DNA of 64,000 nucleotides from Athripsodes cinereus (Eukaryota > Arthropoda > Insecta > Trichoptera > Leptoceridae). Where the stretch lies: assembly GCA_947579605.1 (NCBI GenBank), contig OX388312.1, positions 7,130,001 through 7,194,000 of the forward strand, given 5' to 3'. Of the stretch, positions 5,375-64,000 are shown piece by piece; position 1 is the stretch's first letter, and every line of letters begins with the position of its first letter. Below the pieces are notes generated by a model. It saw nothing but the letters and a program-made list of their open reading frames with translations, ran no database searches and was not told the origin of the DNA. Position numbers and translations under genes: made by a program.

Positions 5375-6243
5375 CATCATCATCATCATCATCGCCCTCA
5401 ACGCTCCTCTCGGGAGCACAGGGCAGAAACCAGCCTCCTCCATTCAGAGCGTCTCTGTGCCAATTGCGTCACCTCTTCCCACGACATTCCTTGCGCTCTG
5501 ATATCGTTGTCATAGGAACGGTGTATTGTGAAAGAGGGACGCCCGGGCCGACGGAACCCCTGCGGACGGAAAAACAGTGCTCTTTTTGGCCAACTATCAT
5601 TGGGCATTCTCAAAACATGTCCCAGCCAGGACCATCGTCTCTCTTGTATTACGGAGATTACAGGTCTCTGCTGGGTGCGCCGGCGCACAGCATCATTTGT
5701 AACATGTTCATACCATCTGACATCCAAAATCCTTCTAAGACACTTGTTTTCAAAGCTTAGTATCTTCCGCTCTTGAGCCTTGGTTAAGTGCCAAGACTCG
5801 CAGCCATATAGAAGGATTGGGATGATGCACGCATTGAACAAGCGACATTTTGTCCTGATGCTGAGTCCAGACGCCTTCCAAACTTTGTTCATGTTGTTGA
5901 AAGCCCCGCTAGCTGCTCCTATGCGGATTGGTAATTCCGACCGGAGATCACCCTCTGGCGTTATGGTTGCTCCCAGGTACCTGAATTTACTAACCTGAGA
6001 TATTTGGGAATTGCCAACCATTAGTGGGGTGTGAGTACTCGTGCATGTACTATTACATATGTACTCCGTTTTACCAGCGTTGATACGAAGGCCAAGGCGC
6101 AAGGAATTTTCATAAAGAGCATTAGCGTTGCACTGTAATCCGTCCACAGATGTATCAAAAAGGGCTAGATCATCCGCATATTCAAGATCGTGCAGCACTC
6201 CCACAGACGTCTCACTGTTTTCACGCTGTGATAAAGGCACCTG
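5375..6243 (-). pseudogene. 5'-truncated RTE-like LINE reverse transcriptase
   Basis: 869 bp bounded by the 9-bp duplication TTTAAATCT (5366-5374 and 6244-6252), so both ends are exact. The minus-strand frame (about 280 codons, stop near 5398) has the catalytic YADD motif at residues 22-25, then 'FRYLGA', 'LLYGCESW' and a C-terminal part with RRWSWLGHVLRMP, GRRPGRPS-type and WRRLVSALCS motifs. This is the palm end, thumb and tail of a LINE reverse transcriptase. The endonuclease and the first RT blocks are missing through truncation, so the copy is dead, although the remaining frame has no stop. The 3' end carries GATGAT repeats; short-repeat tails fit the RTE clade. At least five shorter relatives occur in the window. 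Confidence 0.93.
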
Positions 6244-54906: not shown

Positions 54907-55130
54907 GCACCGCATATCACACATGTGGGGTATCCAGCAGAGCAACTTTATGTAAAAACATGTATGTAATATATCCTTTTCGTGTCAACAATAAAATTAA
55001 GACATTTAGGATGGGTTGCAAACATCATCGCTGAATTTAAAATGTAAGATTTCCTTGTTTTTTTTTTTTAACATCTGCCTATTACTTGACTTTCAAAAAT
55101 TTAAAGAAAAGAGTAGGAGATTATAGAAAA
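54907..55130 (-). mobile_element. Family A short retroposon, diverged, near full length
   Basis: Matches the family A consensus from the tail side (CCGCATATCACACATGTGGGGT) through the GACATTTAGGATGGG block to the 5' portion. Its 5' end runs into the 45-bp tandem array. Confidence 0.85.
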
Positions 55131-55265
55131 CCTATAATCTTCCACTCTTTTCAGATAATAAAATACACAACATCACCTATAATCTTCCACTCTTATCAGA
55201 TAATAAAATACACAACATCACCTATAATCTTCCACTCTTTTCAGACAATAAAATACACAACATCA
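55131..55265. repeat. 45-bp tandem repeat, three units
   Basis: Three head-to-tail units starting CCTATAATCTTCC at 55131, 55176 and 55221, differing at a few positions. The start of the unit is the reverse complement of the end of the adjacent family A copy (GAGTAGGAGATTATAG), so the array seems to have grown from a fold-back of that element. Confidence 0.85.
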
Positions 55266-55754: not shown

Positions 55755-55781
55755 ATTCATATTGTTCTTTTATATACATAT

Positions 55782-56153
55782 TGTTACGTAATCACCATTA
55801 GGAGGGTACTTAAGTTTGGAAGTTTAATGAATTTGAATTTTTATATTATTTTTGGTTATGGAATGTTTGGAAAATAATGACAGGTGGTTGTTTTGGTTTT
55901 GATAAAAAGAAAGATCTAGATAGGCTGGAAGAAAGATGTTATATAATGTGTATATAAGAAATCTGTGTGAACTGTAATAATATGTGACGTATATATAAAT
56001 AATAGATGTTGTAATATGTATTTTAAATAAATAATAATTGTAAATAAATAAAAACGTTTAAATAAATTGTTAATTTTCAAGATGTCATCCTTTTAATTGA
56101 ATTCAGACTTTATTTTCCCTGACACAAGTTATAGAAAAACGATTTACGTTACA
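55782..56153 (+). repeat. 5' LTR
   Basis: 372 bp, same in sequence as the 3' LTR as far as can be read by eye. It contains a TATATAA box at about 55951-55957, a plausible promoter, with several AATAAA words further downstream (about 56026-56060) that could serve as poly(A) signals. The LTR starts 28 bp after the poly(A) signal of the upstream candidate host exon. Confidence 0.97.
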
Positions 56154-56154
56154 T

Positions 56155-56172
56155 TGGTGTCAGGTGTGGGGT
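56155..56172 (+). promoter_or_regulatory. Primer binding site, probably tRNA-Leu
   Basis: One base after the 5' LTR the sequence reads TGGTGTCAGGTGTGGGG. It starts with TGG, the complement of a tRNA CCA end. TGGTGTCAG is the start usually seen in insect elements primed by tRNA-Leu. The exact tRNA is inferred. Confidence 0.75.
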
Positions 56173-56221
56173 TGTGAATCAGATATTTAAGTGCTTAGTG
56201 GAAATAAAGACTGTGTAAAAT

Positions 56222-59200
56222 ATGTCATCAAAAAAATTAACTCTACTTGACTTGAAAGTGGTGGATCTGAAGCGCGAACTAGAAGAAAGAGACGCGGATA
56301 CATCTGGAACGAAGGGTGTGCTCCAACTTCGACTAAGAAAGGTGATGGAAGAAGCAGGTGAAGATCCGGAAACATATATCTTCGAGTTGCCTATAACCAC
56401 CAGTGAGCTTTATAAAGAAATCGAAAAGAAGCTTCAAGAAAATGCTACAGCTATGAAAGAAGAAATAGAAAGGCTTCGAGAAGATTCTAGAGGAACGAAA
56501 GAAGAAATTGAAAGGAAGTTTCAAGAATATTCTGTGTCCTTTGATGAAAGGATTAGCGAGTTAACAAAGCAGGTGAAAGTTTTGGAGAATCAGGCGCTTT
56601 CTTCAACAGCAAGAACGGATTTTGAGCAGAACACAACGGTGGACACAGAGTTCAAGTGTGTAGAGAGTGGTGCAACTTCAATGGTGGAGCATGTGCGTAG
56701 TGATATGCCAACTTTTGATGGAAAGAACTCTTGGGAAGAGTACTTAACTTTGTTCGAAACAGTAGCTATGATAAATGGCTGGTCGATGACAAGAAAAGCA
56801 TCAGTATTGAGTATATCTTTACGAGGAGATGCTTTAAGAGTCCTTCAGATGATTCCGCTTGCGGACAGACAAAACTTTAAATCTTTGGTTGAGAGACTGG
56901 AGATGCGATTTGGACAAAAGCATATGGAACAAGTTTATAGGTCACAGTTGAAGAATCGTGTGCAGAGGCCCAATGAAACTCTACAGGAATTCGAGGCGGA
57001 TGTAGCGCGTCTAGTGAGATGTGCATACCCTACAGTTTCTGATGATGTATGTGAAAGTCTTGCAGTAGACAAGTTTTTGGATGGACTACGAGCAAGTGAG
57101 ACACAACAAGCTATAAAACTGGCTAGACCACAAACTCTTAGGGATGCTTTAACCCAAGCACTCGAATTTGAAGCTGTAAGACAATCCGTACGAGGTCACG
57201 CTCAATCCTGTGTGATGGAAGCTGTACAAGAAAATCAACCACTTTCAATAGAAGACGTAGTTAAGAAGGTTTTGGAGGCCTTGAAAGGAAAGAAGAGACA
57301 ACTACGTTGCTGGGACTGTGGACAAATTGGACACCTGCGTAATCGGTGTCCAGGAAAACTAAAAAGGGTTGATGGAAAGGTGCAACTGTCGACCCGCATT
57401 GCCAATGCCTCGAAGAGATATGCAGATGTTGCGTCGTTCAGCGGACAAGTCAGCAGCATGTTTATAAATGGCAAAGTAAATGGAAAGAATTTGAAACTTT
57501 TGTTGGACACTGGAGCAACAAAGACAATCATGAGACCTGATTTAGTTTGCGAAAAAAAACAAATAAAATCAACTAAATGGACATTACGGACGGCAACTGG
57601 AGTGTCGGCGTCTGTATGCGGTGAGACAGTTGCCAACTTTCACATTGGAAGCACCATCTTCGATCATCAGGTGTTGGTGGCTGAGATAGAGGAGGAAGTT
57701 ATTCTTGGAATGGATGTAATGGCGAAGTATGGATTCAAACTGGATCTGAAGAGGCGAACTCTGAAAATTGGGGATGAAGATATTCTTATACAAGAGCATG
57801 AAGAATTCGCTACACGTGTGCTTGCGGCAGAAGTTGTTACTATTCCAAAACAAAGTGAAATGTTAGTACGAGCCTACTTAGATTGTGACATTCCAAATGG
57901 ACATGTTTTAGTAGTGGAGTCCAACGCTAATACTGAAGCTGGAAAAGGAGTGTTGATTGCGAGAGTCCTGATTCAAGCTAAAAAGGATATTTTGGTCAGG
58001 CTAATGAATATCAATGACTATCCAGTGACTATCAAAGAAGGAGTTTATTTAAGTATGTGTTCATCGGTTTCGTCAGTAACATGTAGAGTGAGCGGTGGCC
58101 AAGTTTCTTCAGAGGAGGTACCAAAACACCTTGACGACTTAGTGAAGGAGGCTTGTAAGGAACTTACCAAGGAACAGAGCAAACAGATTAGATCCTTCAT
58201 CGCTAGAAATCAGGATGTCTTCGAGAACCCAAGTCAACCCAAAGGAAGAACAAGTGTTGTTAGTCATCGAATTGACACAGGTGATGCAAGACCCATTCGT
58301 CAAGTACCCAGAAGATTACCTTTAGCAAAACGGGCGGAAGCAGATCAAATTATTCAAGATATGGAACGGGACAAGGTAATAGAACCGTCAAGCAGTCCAT
58401 GGTGTTCACCTGTAGTGCTGGTTAGGAAGAAGGATGGCTCAACTCGGTTCTGTGTTGATTTTCGCCAACTTAATAATGTTACTAAGAAGGACAGTTACCC
58501 TTTGCCTCGTATTGATGATACGTTGGACACATTGGCTGGCTGTAAAATCTTTTCAACGTTGGATTTGAAGAGTGGATATTGGCAGGTTGGACTGGAACCT
58601 AAGGATAGAGAGAAAACAGCATTCTCTATTGGAAGTGGATTATGGCAGTTCATTGTTATGCCGTTTGGACTTTGTAACGCTCCGGCTACTTTTGAGCGTT
58701 TAATGGAAAGCGTGCTGAGAGGATTGTCGTGGGAGACCTGTTTAGTGTACCTGGATGACATCATCGTGCTTGGAAAATGTTTTGAGGAGCACTTACGAAA
58801 TTTGGAACAAGTGTTTTCACGATTGAGAGCGGCCAACTTGAAACTCAATTTTAAGAAATGTACATTGTTCCGAAGACAAGTCAACTATCTGGGTCATGTT
58901 GTCTCTGAGGAAGGAGTGGCGGTGGATCCTGAGAAGATTAGAGCTGTTCAAGACTGGCCTACACCTAAAGACAAGCATGAAGTAAGAAGCTTTTTAGGCT
59001 TAAGCACTTACTATCGGCGATTTGTTTTGGGCTTCGCTGATATCGCTAAACCATTGACAAAACTCACAGAAGAAAGTAATGAATTTATATGGGATTCAAA
59101 ATGCCAATGCGCGTTTGAAGAATTGAAGAAGGTATTGATTAATTCCCCGATTCTAAGTTATCCTCGAGCCGAAGGGAATTTTATTCTGGATACGGATGCA

Positions 59201-61558
59201 AGCAACGTCGGCATTGGAAGTGTACTATCTCAGGTTCAGGATGGTCAAGAACGCGTAATTGCGTACTTCAGTAAAGTTTTGTCAAGGCCGGAACGCAACT
59301 ATTGTGTAACGCGAAGAGAGTTACTTGCTGTAATCAAATCAGTTGAGCACTTCCGCAAATACCTATATGGACGGAAATTTCTTTTAAGGACAGATCATTC
59401 GGCGCTTGTATGGCTGTTACGATTCAAGAATCCTGAAGGTCAGGTTGCAAGATGGATAGAAAGATTGCAAGAATATGACTATGATTCTGAGCATCGAGCT
59501 GGACTTCGTCATAAAAATGCTGATGCACTGTCAAGGCGTCCATGTCCAGAGGATTGCCAGCATTGTAATAAAGCGGAGGAAAGGTTCGTCATGATTCGTA
59601 GAACTACAGTCATCGATAATTTTTGGCAAGATGATGAAATTCGAGCGCACCAGTTGGAAGATCCTGACCTTGGACTTTTGATGCAGTGGAAAGAAAATGA
59701 TCGAAAACCTTCATGGGAAGAAATAGCTTCATGTTCACCAAATGTTAAATCATATTGGGCACAATGGCAATCCATAGTTGTGGAAAACGGGTTGTTGAAA
59801 CGTATTCTGGAAAGTGAAGATGGAACACAGCAGAAACAACAGCTATTGGTTCCAAGGAAGAGAGTTCCTGATGTCCTTAAGCTGCTTCACGATGATGTGT
59901 CTGGTGGACACTTGGGAGTTAAAAAGACTACAGAAAAGATTCGTCAGAGATTTTATTGGGTCCGTTACACTGAAGATGTAAAAGATTGGTGTAGAAGATG
60001 TGTGACTTGTGCTACTTCGAACGGACCTCAAAAACAGAGGCGTGCGCCAATGAGACAGTACAATGTAGGTAGTCCATTTGAAAGAATAGCCATCGACATA
60101 GCAGGACCGTTTCCCACAACTGAAAGAGGGAACAAGTATATTTTAGTAGCAATGGACTATTTTAGTAAATGGACAGAAGCCTATGCATTACCAAATCAAG
60201 AGGCTACCACTGTTGCTGAAATCTTGGTAAGAGAGCTGATAAGTCGTTTTGGAGTACCGTTGGAGCTTCATTCGGATCAAGGAAGAAATTTTGAGTCAGC
60301 CGTATTTCAGCAAGTATGTGAGATATTGGGAATTCGAAAAACGAGAACAACTGCTTTGCATCCACAGTCGGATGGAATGGTGGAGCGAATGAATCGAACA
60401 TGTGGAAAATATCTGTCGAAGGCGGTGTCTGATCATCAGAAGGATTGGGACGAATACATCCACTTGTTCTTATTGGCCTATCGTTCGGCAATTCATGAGA
60501 CAACGGGACAAACACCAGCGAGTGTGATTTTTGGCCGTGAACTACGGTTACCTTGCGACTTGCAGTATGGATCTAAGCCTGGAGAGGATCTTGTTGGAGA
60601 AGATTATGTATCGGAACTTCGAAGAAAGATGAACGACATCCATGAACGTGTGCGGGCTAATATTCAAGTCGCTAGTGACAGGATGAAGGAAAGATATGAT
60701 GTCAAAGCTGTGGAAGGAGGGTATCAAGCTGGAGATTTAGTTTGGTTGTTCAATCCTCAACGGAGACGAGGCTATTCACCGATGCTTCAAAAATCCTGGG
60801 AAGGACCGTACGAGGTGATTAAAAGAATAAATGACGTTATTTATCGAATACGACGAAAATCAAATGGCAAGCCGAGGGTGGTACATTTCAATCGCTTAGC
60901 ACCGTTTTTAGGAGACAATAAAAGTGAAGGAAACAACCCGATTGTTCAAGTCTGTAAAGTCCTAAGTGAAGAGAAGAGTTTTGAAGAATTTATGAAGACG
61001 CCTCAACGAAGAATTCATCATGGTGTCACTATCGAAGTTGAGCAAGATCTTTTTGACACTCCAGAGGATTATGTTTTGGCTCATTGCTTGGCTCAGAATG
61101 CAAAATTTACTAATGGCATAGCCAAAGTTTTCAAGAAGAAGTACGGGATATTGGAAGAGATTAAGGCCAAGAGTTTGAAAATTGGAGAAGCGGTCCATCT
61201 ACAGCATGGGGAACGACATATATTTTACATGGTAAATAAAGCAATCCCTGAAGAACAAACAGAGTATGTTCAGATGTGGCACTGTTTACAAAGTTTGCGG
61301 GATCAAATGTTACAAATGAATCTTACGAAGCTCGGCATACCAAGGATAAGTGGCAATATGGATTGGAAAGTTGTTCGAAATATGATAGAAGAGATCTTCT
61401 GTAATACTGGAATTAATGTTTTAGTTTGTTGTTTTAATCCAGGGTATAGTGAGAACATCAAGAAGTCTGTACCTTGTTATTTCTTCAAGACTTCACATTG
61501 CAGAGAGGATTCAGGATGCTCCTATCTTCATCCAGAGAATTCGTTCGGGACGAACTAA
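56222..61558 (+). CDS. Gag-Pol polyprotein with SAP, macro and CCCH domains
   Basis: A single 1,778-residue frame encoding all functions for reverse transcription and integration. Domains in order: SAP-like motif (6-42); coiled coil rich in E/K (about 62-125); Gag core (about 160-305); CCHC zinc knuckle C363-C366-H371-C376; aspartic protease with DTGA at 429-432; reverse transcriptase (about 690-905) with YLDD at 843-846; RNase H (about 960-1090) with D990/D992 and D1058; integrase with an H1223/H1230/C1260/C1263 zinc site, catalytic D1292-D1352-E1388 (D,D-35-E) and a GPY module near 1528-1530. After the integrase comes a macro domain (about 1601-1738) close to the OARD1/TARG1 group, with 'NGIAKVFKKKYG' at 1631-1642. 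K1673 and D1714 align with the two catalytic residues of human TARG1 (Lys84 and Asp125, recalled from the literature). A CCCH finger C1752-C1760-C1766-H1770 ends the protein. The macro domain should bind ADP-ribose and may remove it from proteins; this is inferred from the residues. No stops or frameshifts are present. The start is the first ATG after the primer site. Confidence 0.95.
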   Translation: MSSKKLTLLDLKVVDLKRELEERDADTSGTKGVLQLRLRKVMEEAGEDPETYIFELPITTSELYKEIEKKLQENATAMKEEIERLREDSRGTKEEIERKFQEYSVSFDERISELTKQVKVLENQALSSTARTDFEQNTTVDTEFKCVESGATSMVEHVRSDMPTFDGKNSWEEYLTLFETVAMINGWSMTRKASVLSISLRGDALRVLQMIPLADRQNFKSLVERLEMRFGQKHMEQVYRSQLKNRVQRPNETLQEFEADVARLVRCAYPTVSDDVCESLAVDKFLDGLRASETQQAIKLARPQTLRDALTQALEFEAVRQSVRGHAQSCVMEAVQENQPLSIEDVVKKVLEALKGKKRQLRCWDCGQIGHLRNRCPGKLKRVDGKVQLSTRIANASKRYADVASFSGQVSSMFINGKVNGKNLKLLLDTGATKTIMRPDLVCEKKQIKSTKWTLRTATGVSASVCGETVANFHIGSTIFDHQVLVAEIEEEVILGMDVMAKYGFKLDLKRRTLKIGDEDILIQEHEEFATRVLAAEVVTIPKQSEMLVRAYLDCDIPNGHVLVVESNANTEAGKGVLIARVLIQAKKDILVRLMNINDYPVTIKEGVYLSMCSSVSSVTCRVSGGQVSSEEVPKHLDDLVKEACKELTKEQSKQIRSFIARNQDVFENPSQPKGRTSVVSHRIDTGDARPIRQVPRRLPLAKRAEADQIIQDMERDKVIEPSSSPWCSPVVLVRKKDGSTRFCVDFRQLNNVTKKDSYPLPRIDDTLDTLAGCKIFSTLDLKSGYWQVGLEPKDREKTAFSIGSGLWQFIVMPFGLCNAPATFERLMESVLRGLSWETCLVYLDDIIVLGKCFEEHLRNLEQVFSRLRAANLKLNFKKCTLFRRQVNYLGHVVSEEGVAVDPEKIRAVQDWPTPKDKHEVRSFLGLSTYYRRFVLGFADIAKPLTKLTEESNEFIWDSKCQCAFEELKKVLINSPILSYPRAEGNFILDTDASNVGIGSVLSQVQDGQERVIAYFSKVLSRPERNYCVTRRELLAVIKSVEHFRKYLYGRKFLLRTDHSALVWLLRFKNPEGQVARWIERLQEYDYDSEHRAGLRHKNADALSRRPCPEDCQHCNKAEERFVMIRRTTVIDNFWQDDEIRAHQLEDPDLGLLMQWKENDRKPSWEEIASCSPNVKSYWAQWQSIVVENGLLKRILESEDGTQQKQQLLVPRKRVPDVLKLLHDDVSGGHLGVKKTTEKIRQRFYWVRYTEDVKDWCRRCVTCATSNGPQKQRRAPMRQYNVGSPFERIAIDIAGPFPTTERGNKYILVAMDYFSKWTEAYALPNQEATTVAEILVRELISRFGVPLELHSDQGRNFESAVFQQVCEILGIRKTRTTALHPQSDGMVERMNRTCGKYLSKAVSDHQKDWDEYIHLFLLAYRSAIHETTGQTPASVIFGRELRLPCDLQYGSKPGEDLVGEDYVSELRRKMNDIHERVRANIQVASDRMKERYDVKAVEGGYQAGDLVWLFNPQRRRGYSPMLQKSWEGPYEVIKRINDVIYRIRRKSNGKPRVVHFNRLAPFLGDNKSEGNNPIVQVCKVLSEEKSFEEFMKTPQRRIHHGVTIEVEQDLFDTPEDYVLAHCLAQNAKFTNGIAKVFKKKYGILEEIKAKSLKIGEAVHLQHGERHIFYMVNKAIPEEQTEYVQMWHCLQSLRDQMLQMNLTKLGIPRISGNMDWKVVRNMIEEIFCNTGINVLVCCFNPGYSENIKKSVPCYFFKTSHCREDSGCSYLHPENSFGTN
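61022..61435 (+). other. Region encoding the macro (ADP-ribose-binding) domain
   Basis: Codes for residues 1601-1738 of the polyprotein. Visible signatures of the OARD1/TARG1 macro family are a beta strand followed by 'DLF' (D1609, the usual adenine-contacting aspartate), 'AHC', the loop and helix 'NGIAKVFKKKYG', a strand ending in 'MVNK' with K1673, and 'PRISGNMD' with D1714, then a helix 'MIEEIF'. In TARG1 the lysine attacks ADP-ribose and the aspartate completes de-ADP-ribosylation; both are kept. The first glycine of the usual G-x-G-I/V loop is Asn1631 here, the main departure. The domain is in frame with integrase and has no separate start. Confidence 0.85.
61475..61531 (+). other. Region encoding a terminal CCCH zinc finger
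   Basis: Residues C1752, C1760, C1766 and H1770 give the spacing C-X7-C-X5-C-X3-H, within the range of CCCH fingers that bind RNA. It sits eight residues before the stop codon. Its role is not known; nucleic-acid binding is inferred from the spacing alone. Confidence 0.65.
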
Positions 61559-61560
61559 AT

Positions 61561-61574
61561 TAAGAGGGAGGCAA
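61561..61574 (+). promoter_or_regulatory. Polypurine tract
   Basis: TAAGAGGGAGGCAA lies directly before the 3' LTR and directly after the Gag-Pol stop codon. This is the expected place for the primer of plus-strand DNA synthesis. Confidence 0.75.
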
Positions 61575-61946
61575 TGTTACGTAATCACCATTAGGAGGGT
61601 ACTTAAGTTTGGAAGTTTAATGAATTTGAATTTTTATATTATTTTTGGTTATGGAATGTTTGGAAAATAATGACAGGTGGTTGTTTTGGTTTTGATAAAA
61701 AGAAAGATCTAGATAGGCTGGAAGAAAGATGTTATATAATGTGTATATAAGAAATCTGTGTGAACTGTAATAATATGTGACGTATATATAAATAATAGAT
61801 GTTGTAATATGTATTTTAAATAAATAATAATTGTAAATAAATAAAAACGTTTAAATAAATTGTTAATTTTCAAGATGTCATCCTTTTAATTGAATTCAGA
61901 CTTTATTTTCCCTGACACAAGTTATAGAAAAACGATTTACGTTACA
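61575..61946 (+). repeat. 3' LTR
   Basis: 372 bp, matching the 5' LTR throughout on reading. It is followed by the second copy of the ATAT duplication. Confidence 0.97.
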
Positions 61947-61950
61947 ATAT

Positions 61951-63833: not shown

Positions 63834-64000
63834 AATCCCGTGGAGAACCCGGTAAAGAATTGGTCTCCCACTCTTCTCCATAAGTTTTCGAGTGTCCTGT
63901 AAAAGGCAGGTGTTCGAAAAAATAAGACATTTTACATCTTAAATTCAGCGATGAGGTTTGCCACCCATCCTGAATGTCTTGATTTTATATTGGCACGGAG
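63834..64000 (+). mobile_element. Family A retroposon, 5' end, cut by the window edge
   Basis: Starts AATCCCGTGGAGAACCCGG, the same 5' end as the full-length copy at 9289-9549, and is close to consensus up to the last base of the window. Confidence 0.9.

What the first reader, a model, noticed from the sequence alone, without database searches (positions are those of the whole stretch)
61022..61435. A TARG1/OARD1-type macro domain fused to the integrase end of a Ty3/Gypsy retrotransposon
Residues about 1601-1738 of the Gag-Pol frame carry the DLF, AHC, NGIAKVFKKKYG and PRI...MD blocks of the OARD1/TARG1 macro family. The two catalytic positions (K1673 and D1714) are kept. It is in frame with integrase, with no stop, and sits where infectious relatives encode an envelope. 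Established: macro domains bind ADP-ribose and TARG1 removes it from Glu/Asp; some RNA viruses use macro domains to undo host ADP-ribosylation. Inference: this element carries a counter-defence or self-regulatory ADP-ribosyl hydrolase. I know of no characterised Gypsy family described this way, but I could not search.
Basis: partly seen in the sequence, partly recalled or inferred. Interest (0 to 1): 0.93.

Follow-up and report, generated by a model that had tools for sequence, protein, structure and literature searches.

The report
ADP-ribose eraser domain in jumping gene
A young, abundant virus-like jumping gene in this genome carries, fused to the enzyme that inserts it into chromosomes, a relative of the cell's TARG1 domain (which removes ADP-ribose tags) plus a small zinc finger, and some envelope-bearing relatives in the same genome carry a similar domain elsewhere in their polymerase protein.

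Summary
Confirmed and extended. An AlphaFold2 model on a macrodomain alignment has 97 of 186 residues at pLDDT 90 or more. It is a family trait: 127 of 129 near-identical integrase cores here are followed by it, whole or in part, and a 73%-identical database protein has the same integrase-macro-CCCH order. Unexpectedly, envelope-bearing errantivirus-like families here carry a TARG1-like domain elsewhere in Pol, between RNase H and integrase (24 places, 23 with a Baculo_F envelope match downstream). Catalytic K and D survive in the window family and P0008, not in several errantivirus families. Best reading: an ADP-ribose eraser or binder that travels with integrase, perhaps clearing host ADP-ribosylation from the element's nucleic-acid ends or proteins. 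Activity is untested and signature glycines are altered. Ten literature searches showed no Gypsy precedent; fish retroviruses with macro ORFs are nearest.

The parts
55782..56153 (+). 5' LTR, 372 nt, identical to the 3' LTR; preceded by ATAT (55778-55781)
56222..61558 (+). single gag-pol-macro-CCCH frame, 1778 aa, no stop
   Evidence: searched only in pieces
56252..56341 (+). SAP domain at the Gag N-terminus
   Evidence: Pfam PF02037, 27.4 bits (cut-off 23.9)
56807..57091 (+). Gag (Retrotrans_gag)
   Evidence: Pfam PF03732, E 8.9e-8
57467..57718 (+). aspartic protease
   Evidence: Pfam PF13650, E 2.9e-10
58421..58900 (+). reverse transcriptase
   Evidence: Pfam PF00078, E 2.5e-36
59090..59476 (+). 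RNase H
   Evidence: Pfam PF17919/PF17917
59849..60355 (+). integrase zinc-binding domain and catalytic core
   Evidence: Pfam PF17921 E 4.6e-20 and PF00665 E 3.3e-16
60803..60904 (+). integrase C-terminal domain (Integrase_p58_C)
   Evidence: Pfam PF22938, E 8.6e-14
61034..61426 (+). TARG1/OARD1-type macrodomain
   Evidence: PDB 4j5r E 1.5e-19; model mean pLDDT 79.1 over the 186-residue tail
61238..61240 (+). codon of K1673, aligned with TARG1 K84
   Evidence: TARG1 numbering recalled
61361..61363 (+). codon of D1714, aligned with TARG1 D125
   Evidence: TARG1 numbering recalled
61475..61531 (+). CCCH zinc-finger motif, C-x7-C-x5-C-x3-H
   Evidence: sequence; below Pfam cut-off here, just above it in relative P0002 with the same spacing (PF00642 20.9 bits, cut-off 20.5); no PDB match below E 0.19
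61559..61574 (+). 16 nt between the stop and the 3' LTR (purine-rich); no room for an envelope gene
61575..61946 (+). 3' LTR, 372 nt; followed by ATAT (61947-61950)

Best explanation
The window holds a young, envelope-less Ty3/Gypsy retrotransposon with an unbroken frame, whose Pol ends in a TARG1-type macrodomain followed by a CCCH motif (shown). Inferred: the tail travels with integrase, as a fusion or cleaved from it, into the particle and pre-integration complex. There the macrodomain binds and probably removes ADP-ribose that host PARP or TRPT1 enzymes put on phosphorylated DNA or RNA ends, or on acidic residues of the element's proteins, while the CCCH finger holds it near RNA. In effect an integrase-tethered eraser that keeps cDNA ends, RNA or Pol usable. 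Shown: homology, position, kept K and D, presence in nearly all copies. Inferred: activity, substrate, benefit.
For: Homology to TARG1/OARD1 over the whole domain, E 1.5e-19, and for the 73%-identical relative P0002 on its own, E 1.8e-17. K and D kept in both, with no indel between the two in the macro alignment. 127 of 129 integrase cores are followed by the tail, 122 at the window's spacing. The CCCH spacing is conserved in P0002. Confident model on a macrodomain alignment. A separate set of elements also carries a TARG1-like domain in Pol, and between two of these families the domain evolves under some constraint (dN/dS 0.22 at dS 1.09). Established: TARG1 removes ADP-ribose from Glu/Asp, from phosphates at DNA breaks and from phosphorylated RNA ends (PMC6582358, abstract and passages; PMC7237415, abstract and passages).
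Against: No activity was measured. TARG1 G41 reads T; G121 and G123 read S and N, and three residues after D are missing. Errantivirus families L034, L037 and L043 lack the catalytic D and L042 has E, so binding without hydrolysis, or no function, may be the case there. In the L042-L043 pair the macrodomain changes faster than integrase (dN 0.241 against 0.116). Within family L043, two pairs show 0 and 1 synonymous against 5 nonsynonymous changes each. The window family's copies are too young to measure selection on its own domain: 26 of 30 loci examined, picked for protein identity, are DNA-identical over the macro region. The CCCH motif is below Pfam's cut-off in the window and modelled with low confidence. 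No expression or particle data.
Confidence: 0.5

Rival explanations
1. Reader, not eraser: the macrodomain at the integrase C-terminus works like the chromodomain of chromoviruses, tethering the integration complex to ADP-ribosylated chromatin or to break-repair sites.
For: Same place as chromodomains (end of integrase; recalled). Glycine positions altered in a way that may favour binding over turnover (residues; the inference is mine). Several errantivirus domains have lost D.
Against: K and D are both kept in the window family, P0002 and P0008. Of 29 insertion flanks read (of 30 loci), 28 have TA at positions 2-3 and 12 begin ATAT, a weak site preference; mean flank GC is 0.32 against 0.317 for the window, and the 12 short pairwise matches among flanks show no repeat common to all. 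No test of chromatin state was possible.
Confidence: 0.22
2. Passenger or structural spacer: the captured domain folds but has no ADP-ribose function, and is kept by hitch-hiking in a young burst.
For: Very young burst with almost no variation in the loci read, so its presence in nearly all copies shows little by itself. Glycines lost. Pfam Macro not matched. Faster change than integrase in one errantivirus pair.
Against: The relative P0002 keeps an uninterrupted domain, K, D and the CCCH ligands at 72% identity of the macrodomain. A TARG1-like domain also sits in several other Pol families, in one comparison under constraint.
Confidence: 0.18
3. Evolutionary rival: not two captures but one. 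A TARG1 domain entered a common ancestor, and was moved from the RNase H-integrase linker to the end of Pol (or the reverse) in this family.
For: The macro tree groups window family and errantivirus domains, 93/88, with human OARD1 just outside. After its own family, the remaining 21 rows of the integrase list (150 scored of 1748 candidates) are those errantivirus families.
Against: The grouping is not starred, and the AU test does not reject window family + OARD1 (p 0.11). The window domain matches OARD1 better (87.8 bits) than any errantivirus domain (67.8 or less). An errantivirus-like family with close RT (L101) shows no such domain. Only one animal OARD1 was in the tree.
Confidence: 0.4
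4. Artefact: chance read-through into host sequence or assembly error.
For: None found.
Against: 127 of 129 copies share it; an independent sequence source has it; OARD1 match E 1.5e-19.
Confidence: 0.01

Closest known systems
Human TARG1/OARD1 (C6orf130), PDB 4j5r and others
   Same: Macrodomain of the same clade; whole-domain alignment, K84 and D125 equivalents kept.
   Different: Fused behind a retrotransposon integrase and followed by a CCCH motif; G41, G121, G123 changed; three residues missing after D.
Errantivirus-like Ty3/Gypsy elements of the same genome (L034, L037, L042, L043, L099)
   Same: Pol polyproteins with a TARG1-like domain (L099: only its C-terminal part seen).
   Different: There the domain lies between RNase H and integrase, a Baculo_F envelope match follows pol, and D or K is often lost; the window element has the domain after integrase, a CCCH motif and no envelope.
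Fish epsilon-like endogenous retroviruses with macro-domain ORFs (Basta et al. 2009, as cited in PMC4977317; passage seen, original not held)
   Same: A retroelement that carries a macrodomain ORF.
   Different: Vertebrate retroviruses, described there as additional ORFs; macro subfamily and position not seen by me.
Chromoviruses (chromodomain at the integrase C-terminus; recalled)
   Same: Host-derived module fused at the end of integrase.
   Different: Reads methylated histones; here an ADP-ribose domain.
Macrodomains of VEEV and SARS viruses (PMC6582358, abstract and passages)
   Same: Viral use of a macrodomain ADP-ribosylhydrolase.
   Different: Described there as MACROD-like, in RNA viruses; not TARG1 type and not beside an integrase.
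DarG antitoxin macrodomain (NCBIfam NF048014)
   Same: The only NCBIfam match of the window tail, P0002 and P0003 at E 1 or less; named there a DNA ADP-ribosyl glycohydrolase.
   Different: Window tail E 0.0011 and 18.4 bits, far below the cut-off of 250.

Membership tests
TARG1/OARD1 macrodomains | Significant full-domain match to OARD1, better than to other macro types | tested here: met
   PDB search: OARD1 entries E 1.5e-19 to 2.8e-19, next hit 0.089; tree places it with OARD1, 100/100 against 8 phage/bacterial macrodomains
TARG1/OARD1 macrodomains | Catalytic Lys84 and Asp125 (numbers and role recalled) | tested here: met
   K1673 and D1714 align
TARG1/OARD1 macrodomains | Glycines around ADP-ribose (G41, G43, G121, G123; role recalled) | tested here: not met
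   T, G, S, N in the window: one of four kept. So filed as a TARG1-clade domain by descent, not as a proven TARG1 enzyme
TARG1/OARD1 macrodomains | Macro fold | tested here: met
   AlphaFold2 with a 22-row alignment of macrodomains, pLDDT 79.1, strand/helix order as I recall it for macrodomains; the alignment favours this fold, and no fold search could be run
TARG1/OARD1 macrodomains | Hydrolysis of Glu/Asp-ADP-ribose | not testable with these tools
   needs assay
Macro, Pfam PF01661 | Score over the curated cut-off (22 bits) | tested here: not met
   not listed for the window at E 10; P0002 14.1, P0008 25.1, human OARD1 27.8 bits
Ty3/Gypsy LTR retrotransposon | LTRs, Gag, PR-RT-RH-IN order | tested here: met
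Errantivirus | env gene after pol | tested here: not met
   16 nt between stop and LTR
Errantivirus | Close Pol relationship | tested here: inconclusive
   RT/RH piece 45% identical to L034 and at most 49% (to L101), while the six errantivirus-like rows compared are 61-71% identical to L034
CCCH zinc finger | C-x7/8-C-x5-C-x3-H with family profile score | tested here: inconclusive
   spacing C-x7-C-x5-C-x3-H; below cut-off in the window, just above it in P0002

The most novel reading that the evidence does not exclude
TARG1-type ADP-ribose erasers are a recurrent, possibly ancestral, component of errantivirus-kind Ty3/Gypsy retroelements, carried at two places in Pol (RNase H-integrase linker, and integrase C-terminus with an RNA-binding CCCH finger). 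They would mark an arms race in which hosts ADP-ribosylate retroelement cDNA/RNA ends or integration complexes and the elements erase it.
Probability: 0.3. Interest if true: 0.9.

Novelty: new variant of a known kind. Interest (0 to 1): 0.76.

Why it matters
Retroelements are known to pick up host modules in Pol (chromodomains, dUTPases; recalled), but an ADP-ribose-handling domain attached to integrase would link PARP/TARG1 biology with retrotransposition. TARG1 is known to clean ADP-ribose from DNA-break phosphates and RNA ends, which are just the ends that a retroelement must keep usable, so the idea is directly testable. TARG1-like domains in envelope-bearing families suggest that the RNase H-integrase linker of some such elements hides an enzyme-derived domain. 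The family is abundant and young: 48 of the 141 matching places of the window family have frames of 1775-1788 aa.

Tried and rejected
Single-sequence AlphaFold2 model: pLDDT 39, discarded; the aligned run replaced it. Profile search of the large protein set with the mixed alignment A2: none of 478 candidates. Scans of viral contigs with the window tail, P0008's domain, human OARD1 and a bacterial domain: no relatives. Genome contigs with A3: none; a pattern scan there gave two loci, one without a macro frame at the match (L058, dropped) and one macro ORF (L057). Host OARD1 gene: no exon recognised; the rows that I could place lie in retroelement frames, but both lists are capped near 150 and a diverged gene could be missed. 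PF01661 in the genome gave three other places over the cut-off, two of them near each other on C18 in a locus with no frame above 333 aa; not pursued. Selection inside the window family: not measurable, copies too alike; the first version of that count left eight minus-strand loci unturned and is disregarded. Family L101 has a long RNase H-integrase linker with no detectable macrodomain. Family L100 could not be resolved because no long frame lay in the stretch fetched. The host was not identified in any call. Literature: 10 searches; judged by listings, no paper on a Gypsy element with a macrodomain. Of one search's 31 papers 15 were listed and one of those was opened. Opened by passages: PMC4977317, PMC12992720 (no mention of macro or ADP-ribose), PMC8003356, PMC2797524 (its ADP-ribose mention is a reference on Drosophila PARP), PMC11642819 (a macro-like domain in a polyprotein of an aphid virus, not a retroelement), PMC7139919. 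No preprints are held; Chary and Hayashi 2024 (preprint on errantivirus origins, seen only as a citation) could not be read.
Full report
What is there. Between two identical 372-nt LTRs (55782-56153 and 61575-61946) flanked by ATAT on both sides lies one open frame, 56222-61558, 1778 aa. Searched piece by piece it holds SAP, Gag, a zinc knuckle below cut-off, aspartic protease, RT, RNase H and integrase, then the integrase C-terminal domain (PF22938) and a tail of about 200 residues. The stop is 16 nt before the 3' LTR, so there is no envelope gene. The host was not identified here.

The tail. Residues 93-223 of the last piece (61034-61426) match human OARD1/TARG1 in the PDB, E 1.5e-19, ungapped except for three residues missing after the catalytic D. 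K1673 and D1714 sit at the TARG1 catalytic positions (TARG1 numbering and roles recalled). Pfam's Macro profile does not list it at E 10; the same profile gives human OARD1 27.8 bits (cut-off 22), P0002 14.1 and P0008's domain 25.1. NCBIfam gives only DarG, far below its cut-off. Behind the macrodomain is a C-x7-C-x5-C-x3-H motif (61475-61531), below Pfam's cut-off here but just above it in relative P0002.

Structure. AlphaFold2 without an alignment failed (pLDDT 39). With 22 rows it gave pLDDT 79.1, 97 of 186 residues at 90 or more, and a strand/helix order that fits a macrodomain; the CCCH part is low. The rows were the window, P0002, one bacterial ORF (L057) and 19 of the 40 macro-pattern ORFs of viral contigs, picked from their ranking against OARD1 with near-duplicates and some others left out. 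Since the alignment was made of macrodomains, this shows that the sequence suits the fold rather than being independent proof.

A trait of a young, abundant family. In the host genome (716 Mb, 160 contigs) the tail has 145 matches (150 of 165 candidates scored): 141 at 89% identity or more and 4 at 23-25%. Of 129 integrase cores at 97% identity or more (150 of 1748 candidates scored), 127 are followed by a macro match, whole or partial, within 3 kb, 122 at the window's spacing. Of the two exceptions, C140 has integrase to about its C-terminal domain and then a 984-aa frame on the other strand 200 nt on; C1:7886227 is itself an incomplete core match. Of the 141 places 48 have frames of 1775-1788 aa and 18 a frame of 1412 aa. 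Of 30 loci fetched (the best-scoring ones, so biased towards identity) 26 are DNA-identical over the macro region. No match lies between 89% and 25%, which points to a recent burst or arrival.

A relative from another source. P0002, a database protein of unnamed origin, is 73% identical over 98% of the query and has the same order: integrase C-terminus, macrodomain with K and D, CCCH. It matches OARD1 at E 1.8e-17 on its own. It was the only hit of that search, in which 11 candidates were scored.

An unexpected second setting. The four distant matches lie in Pol frames of errantivirus-like elements, between RNase H and integrase (L035 and L036 are broken or rearranged copies of L034's family). 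L034 has a gag frame, a 1295-aa pol frame and an env frame that matches Baculo_F, E 1.2e-51. Its domain matches OARD1 at E 2.7e-9, that of L043 at 1.8e-8, that of L037 at 3.8e-7; none of the L034, L037, L042 and L043 pieces matches Pfam's Macro. P0008, a partial Pol of unnamed origin, has the domain at the same place with K and D and PRIGTGFDRLSW, E 2e-18 to OARD1. With P0008's domain as query, the genome shows 24 places of this type ahead of the window family (150 of 165 candidates scored); 23 of 24 have a Baculo_F match on the same strand within 6 kb downstream. A further family (C24, L099) shows the C-terminal part with D kept and a Baculo_F match nearby. One envelope family (L101) has a long linker without a detectable macrodomain, and one (L100) was not resolved. 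So the trait is patchy.

Residues. At the TARG1 positions 84 and 125: window K, D; P0002 K, D; P0008 K, D; L034 K, gap; L037 Q, N; L042 K, E; L043 K, R; P0007, by eye, K, N. At G41, G43, G121, G123 the window has T, G, S, N. So the window family may be a working hydrolase but with altered loops, and several errantivirus domains are more likely binders or relics. Between families L042 and L043 the domain has dN/dS 0.22 (dS 1.09), but its dN (0.241) is twice that of the integrase piece (0.116, whose dS is saturated); L034, L035 and L036 give 0.23-0.43 on 3 to 15 changes; L043-L044 and L043-L045 show 0 and 1 synonymous against 5 nonsynonymous changes each.

One capture or two. In a tree of 17 domains all 8 retroelement domains and OARD1 separate from 8 phage and bacterial macrodomains (100/100); the errantivirus set is one group (99/97); the window family joins it at 93/88, not starred. 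Grouping the window family with OARD1 instead is not rejected (p 0.11). By RT/RNase H piece the window is a long branch beside the errantivirus-like set (45% to L034, at most 49%), and L101 without the domain lies among that set. Open; only one animal OARD1 was available and no host OARD1 exon was recognised.

Mechanism. TARG1 removes terminal ADP-ribose from Glu/Asp, from phosphates at DNA breaks and from phosphorylated RNA ends (PMC6582358, abstract and passages). A retroelement's cDNA ends and RNA are such ends. An eraser attached to integrase, with a CCCH finger for RNA, would keep them free. This is inference. The rival reader model (chromatin tether, like chromodomains) is not excluded; of the 29 insertion flanks that I could read, 28 have TA at positions 2-3, and base composition is ordinary, which does not speak for strong targeting but does not test it.

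Known or new. Ten searches of the held literature showed no Gypsy element with a macrodomain (listings, with five of the listed papers opened by passages). The nearest precedent is a sentence that fish epsilon-like endogenous retroviruses sometimes include macro-domain ORFs (PMC4977317, passage). I rate this a new variant of a known kind: a retroelement with a captured host module, but a module and positions that I found undescribed in that library.

Noticed in passing
window 56252-56341: SAP (DNA-binding) domain at the very N-terminus of Gag, above Pfam's cut-off; unusual for a Gypsy Gag as far as I recall.
   Followed up: no
G000, 18 of 141 places, e.g. C10:9914526, C3:8434425: A recurrent class of copies whose frame is 1412 aa instead of 1779, which suggests a shared change upstream in the Gag part: a second subfamily.
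   Followed up: no
window 54991-55062 and 63917-63988: 72-nt inverted repeat arms, 86% complementary, about 8.9 kb apart, enclosing the retroelement; perhaps an older DNA transposon into which it inserted.
   Followed up: no
window 55130-55265: Three tandem copies of a 45-bp unit, 98-100% alike, upstream of the 5' LTR.
   Followed up: no
window 5398-6240 (-): 280-aa ORF with a DUF6451 match and an RT match below Pfam's cut-off: perhaps a LINE-like fragment.
   Followed up: partly
L101 (G000 C18:5875900-5878000): Family with a linker of about 260 residues between RNase H and integrase, without a recognisable macrodomain and no PDB match below E 0.3; nature of the linker unknown.
   Followed up: partly
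G000, whole genome: Baculo_F gave 71 matches in several families of different envelope length: this genome is rich in envelope-bearing Gypsy-type elements.
   Followed up: partly
G000 C18:3940654-3943629 and C11:28622968: Three matches to Pfam Macro over the cut-off outside the retroelement families, probably host macrodomain genes.
   Followed up: no
window 56154-56178: Primer-binding site region begins TTGGTGTCAGGTGTGGGG; resembles, from recall, a tRNA-Leu type site.
   Followed up: no
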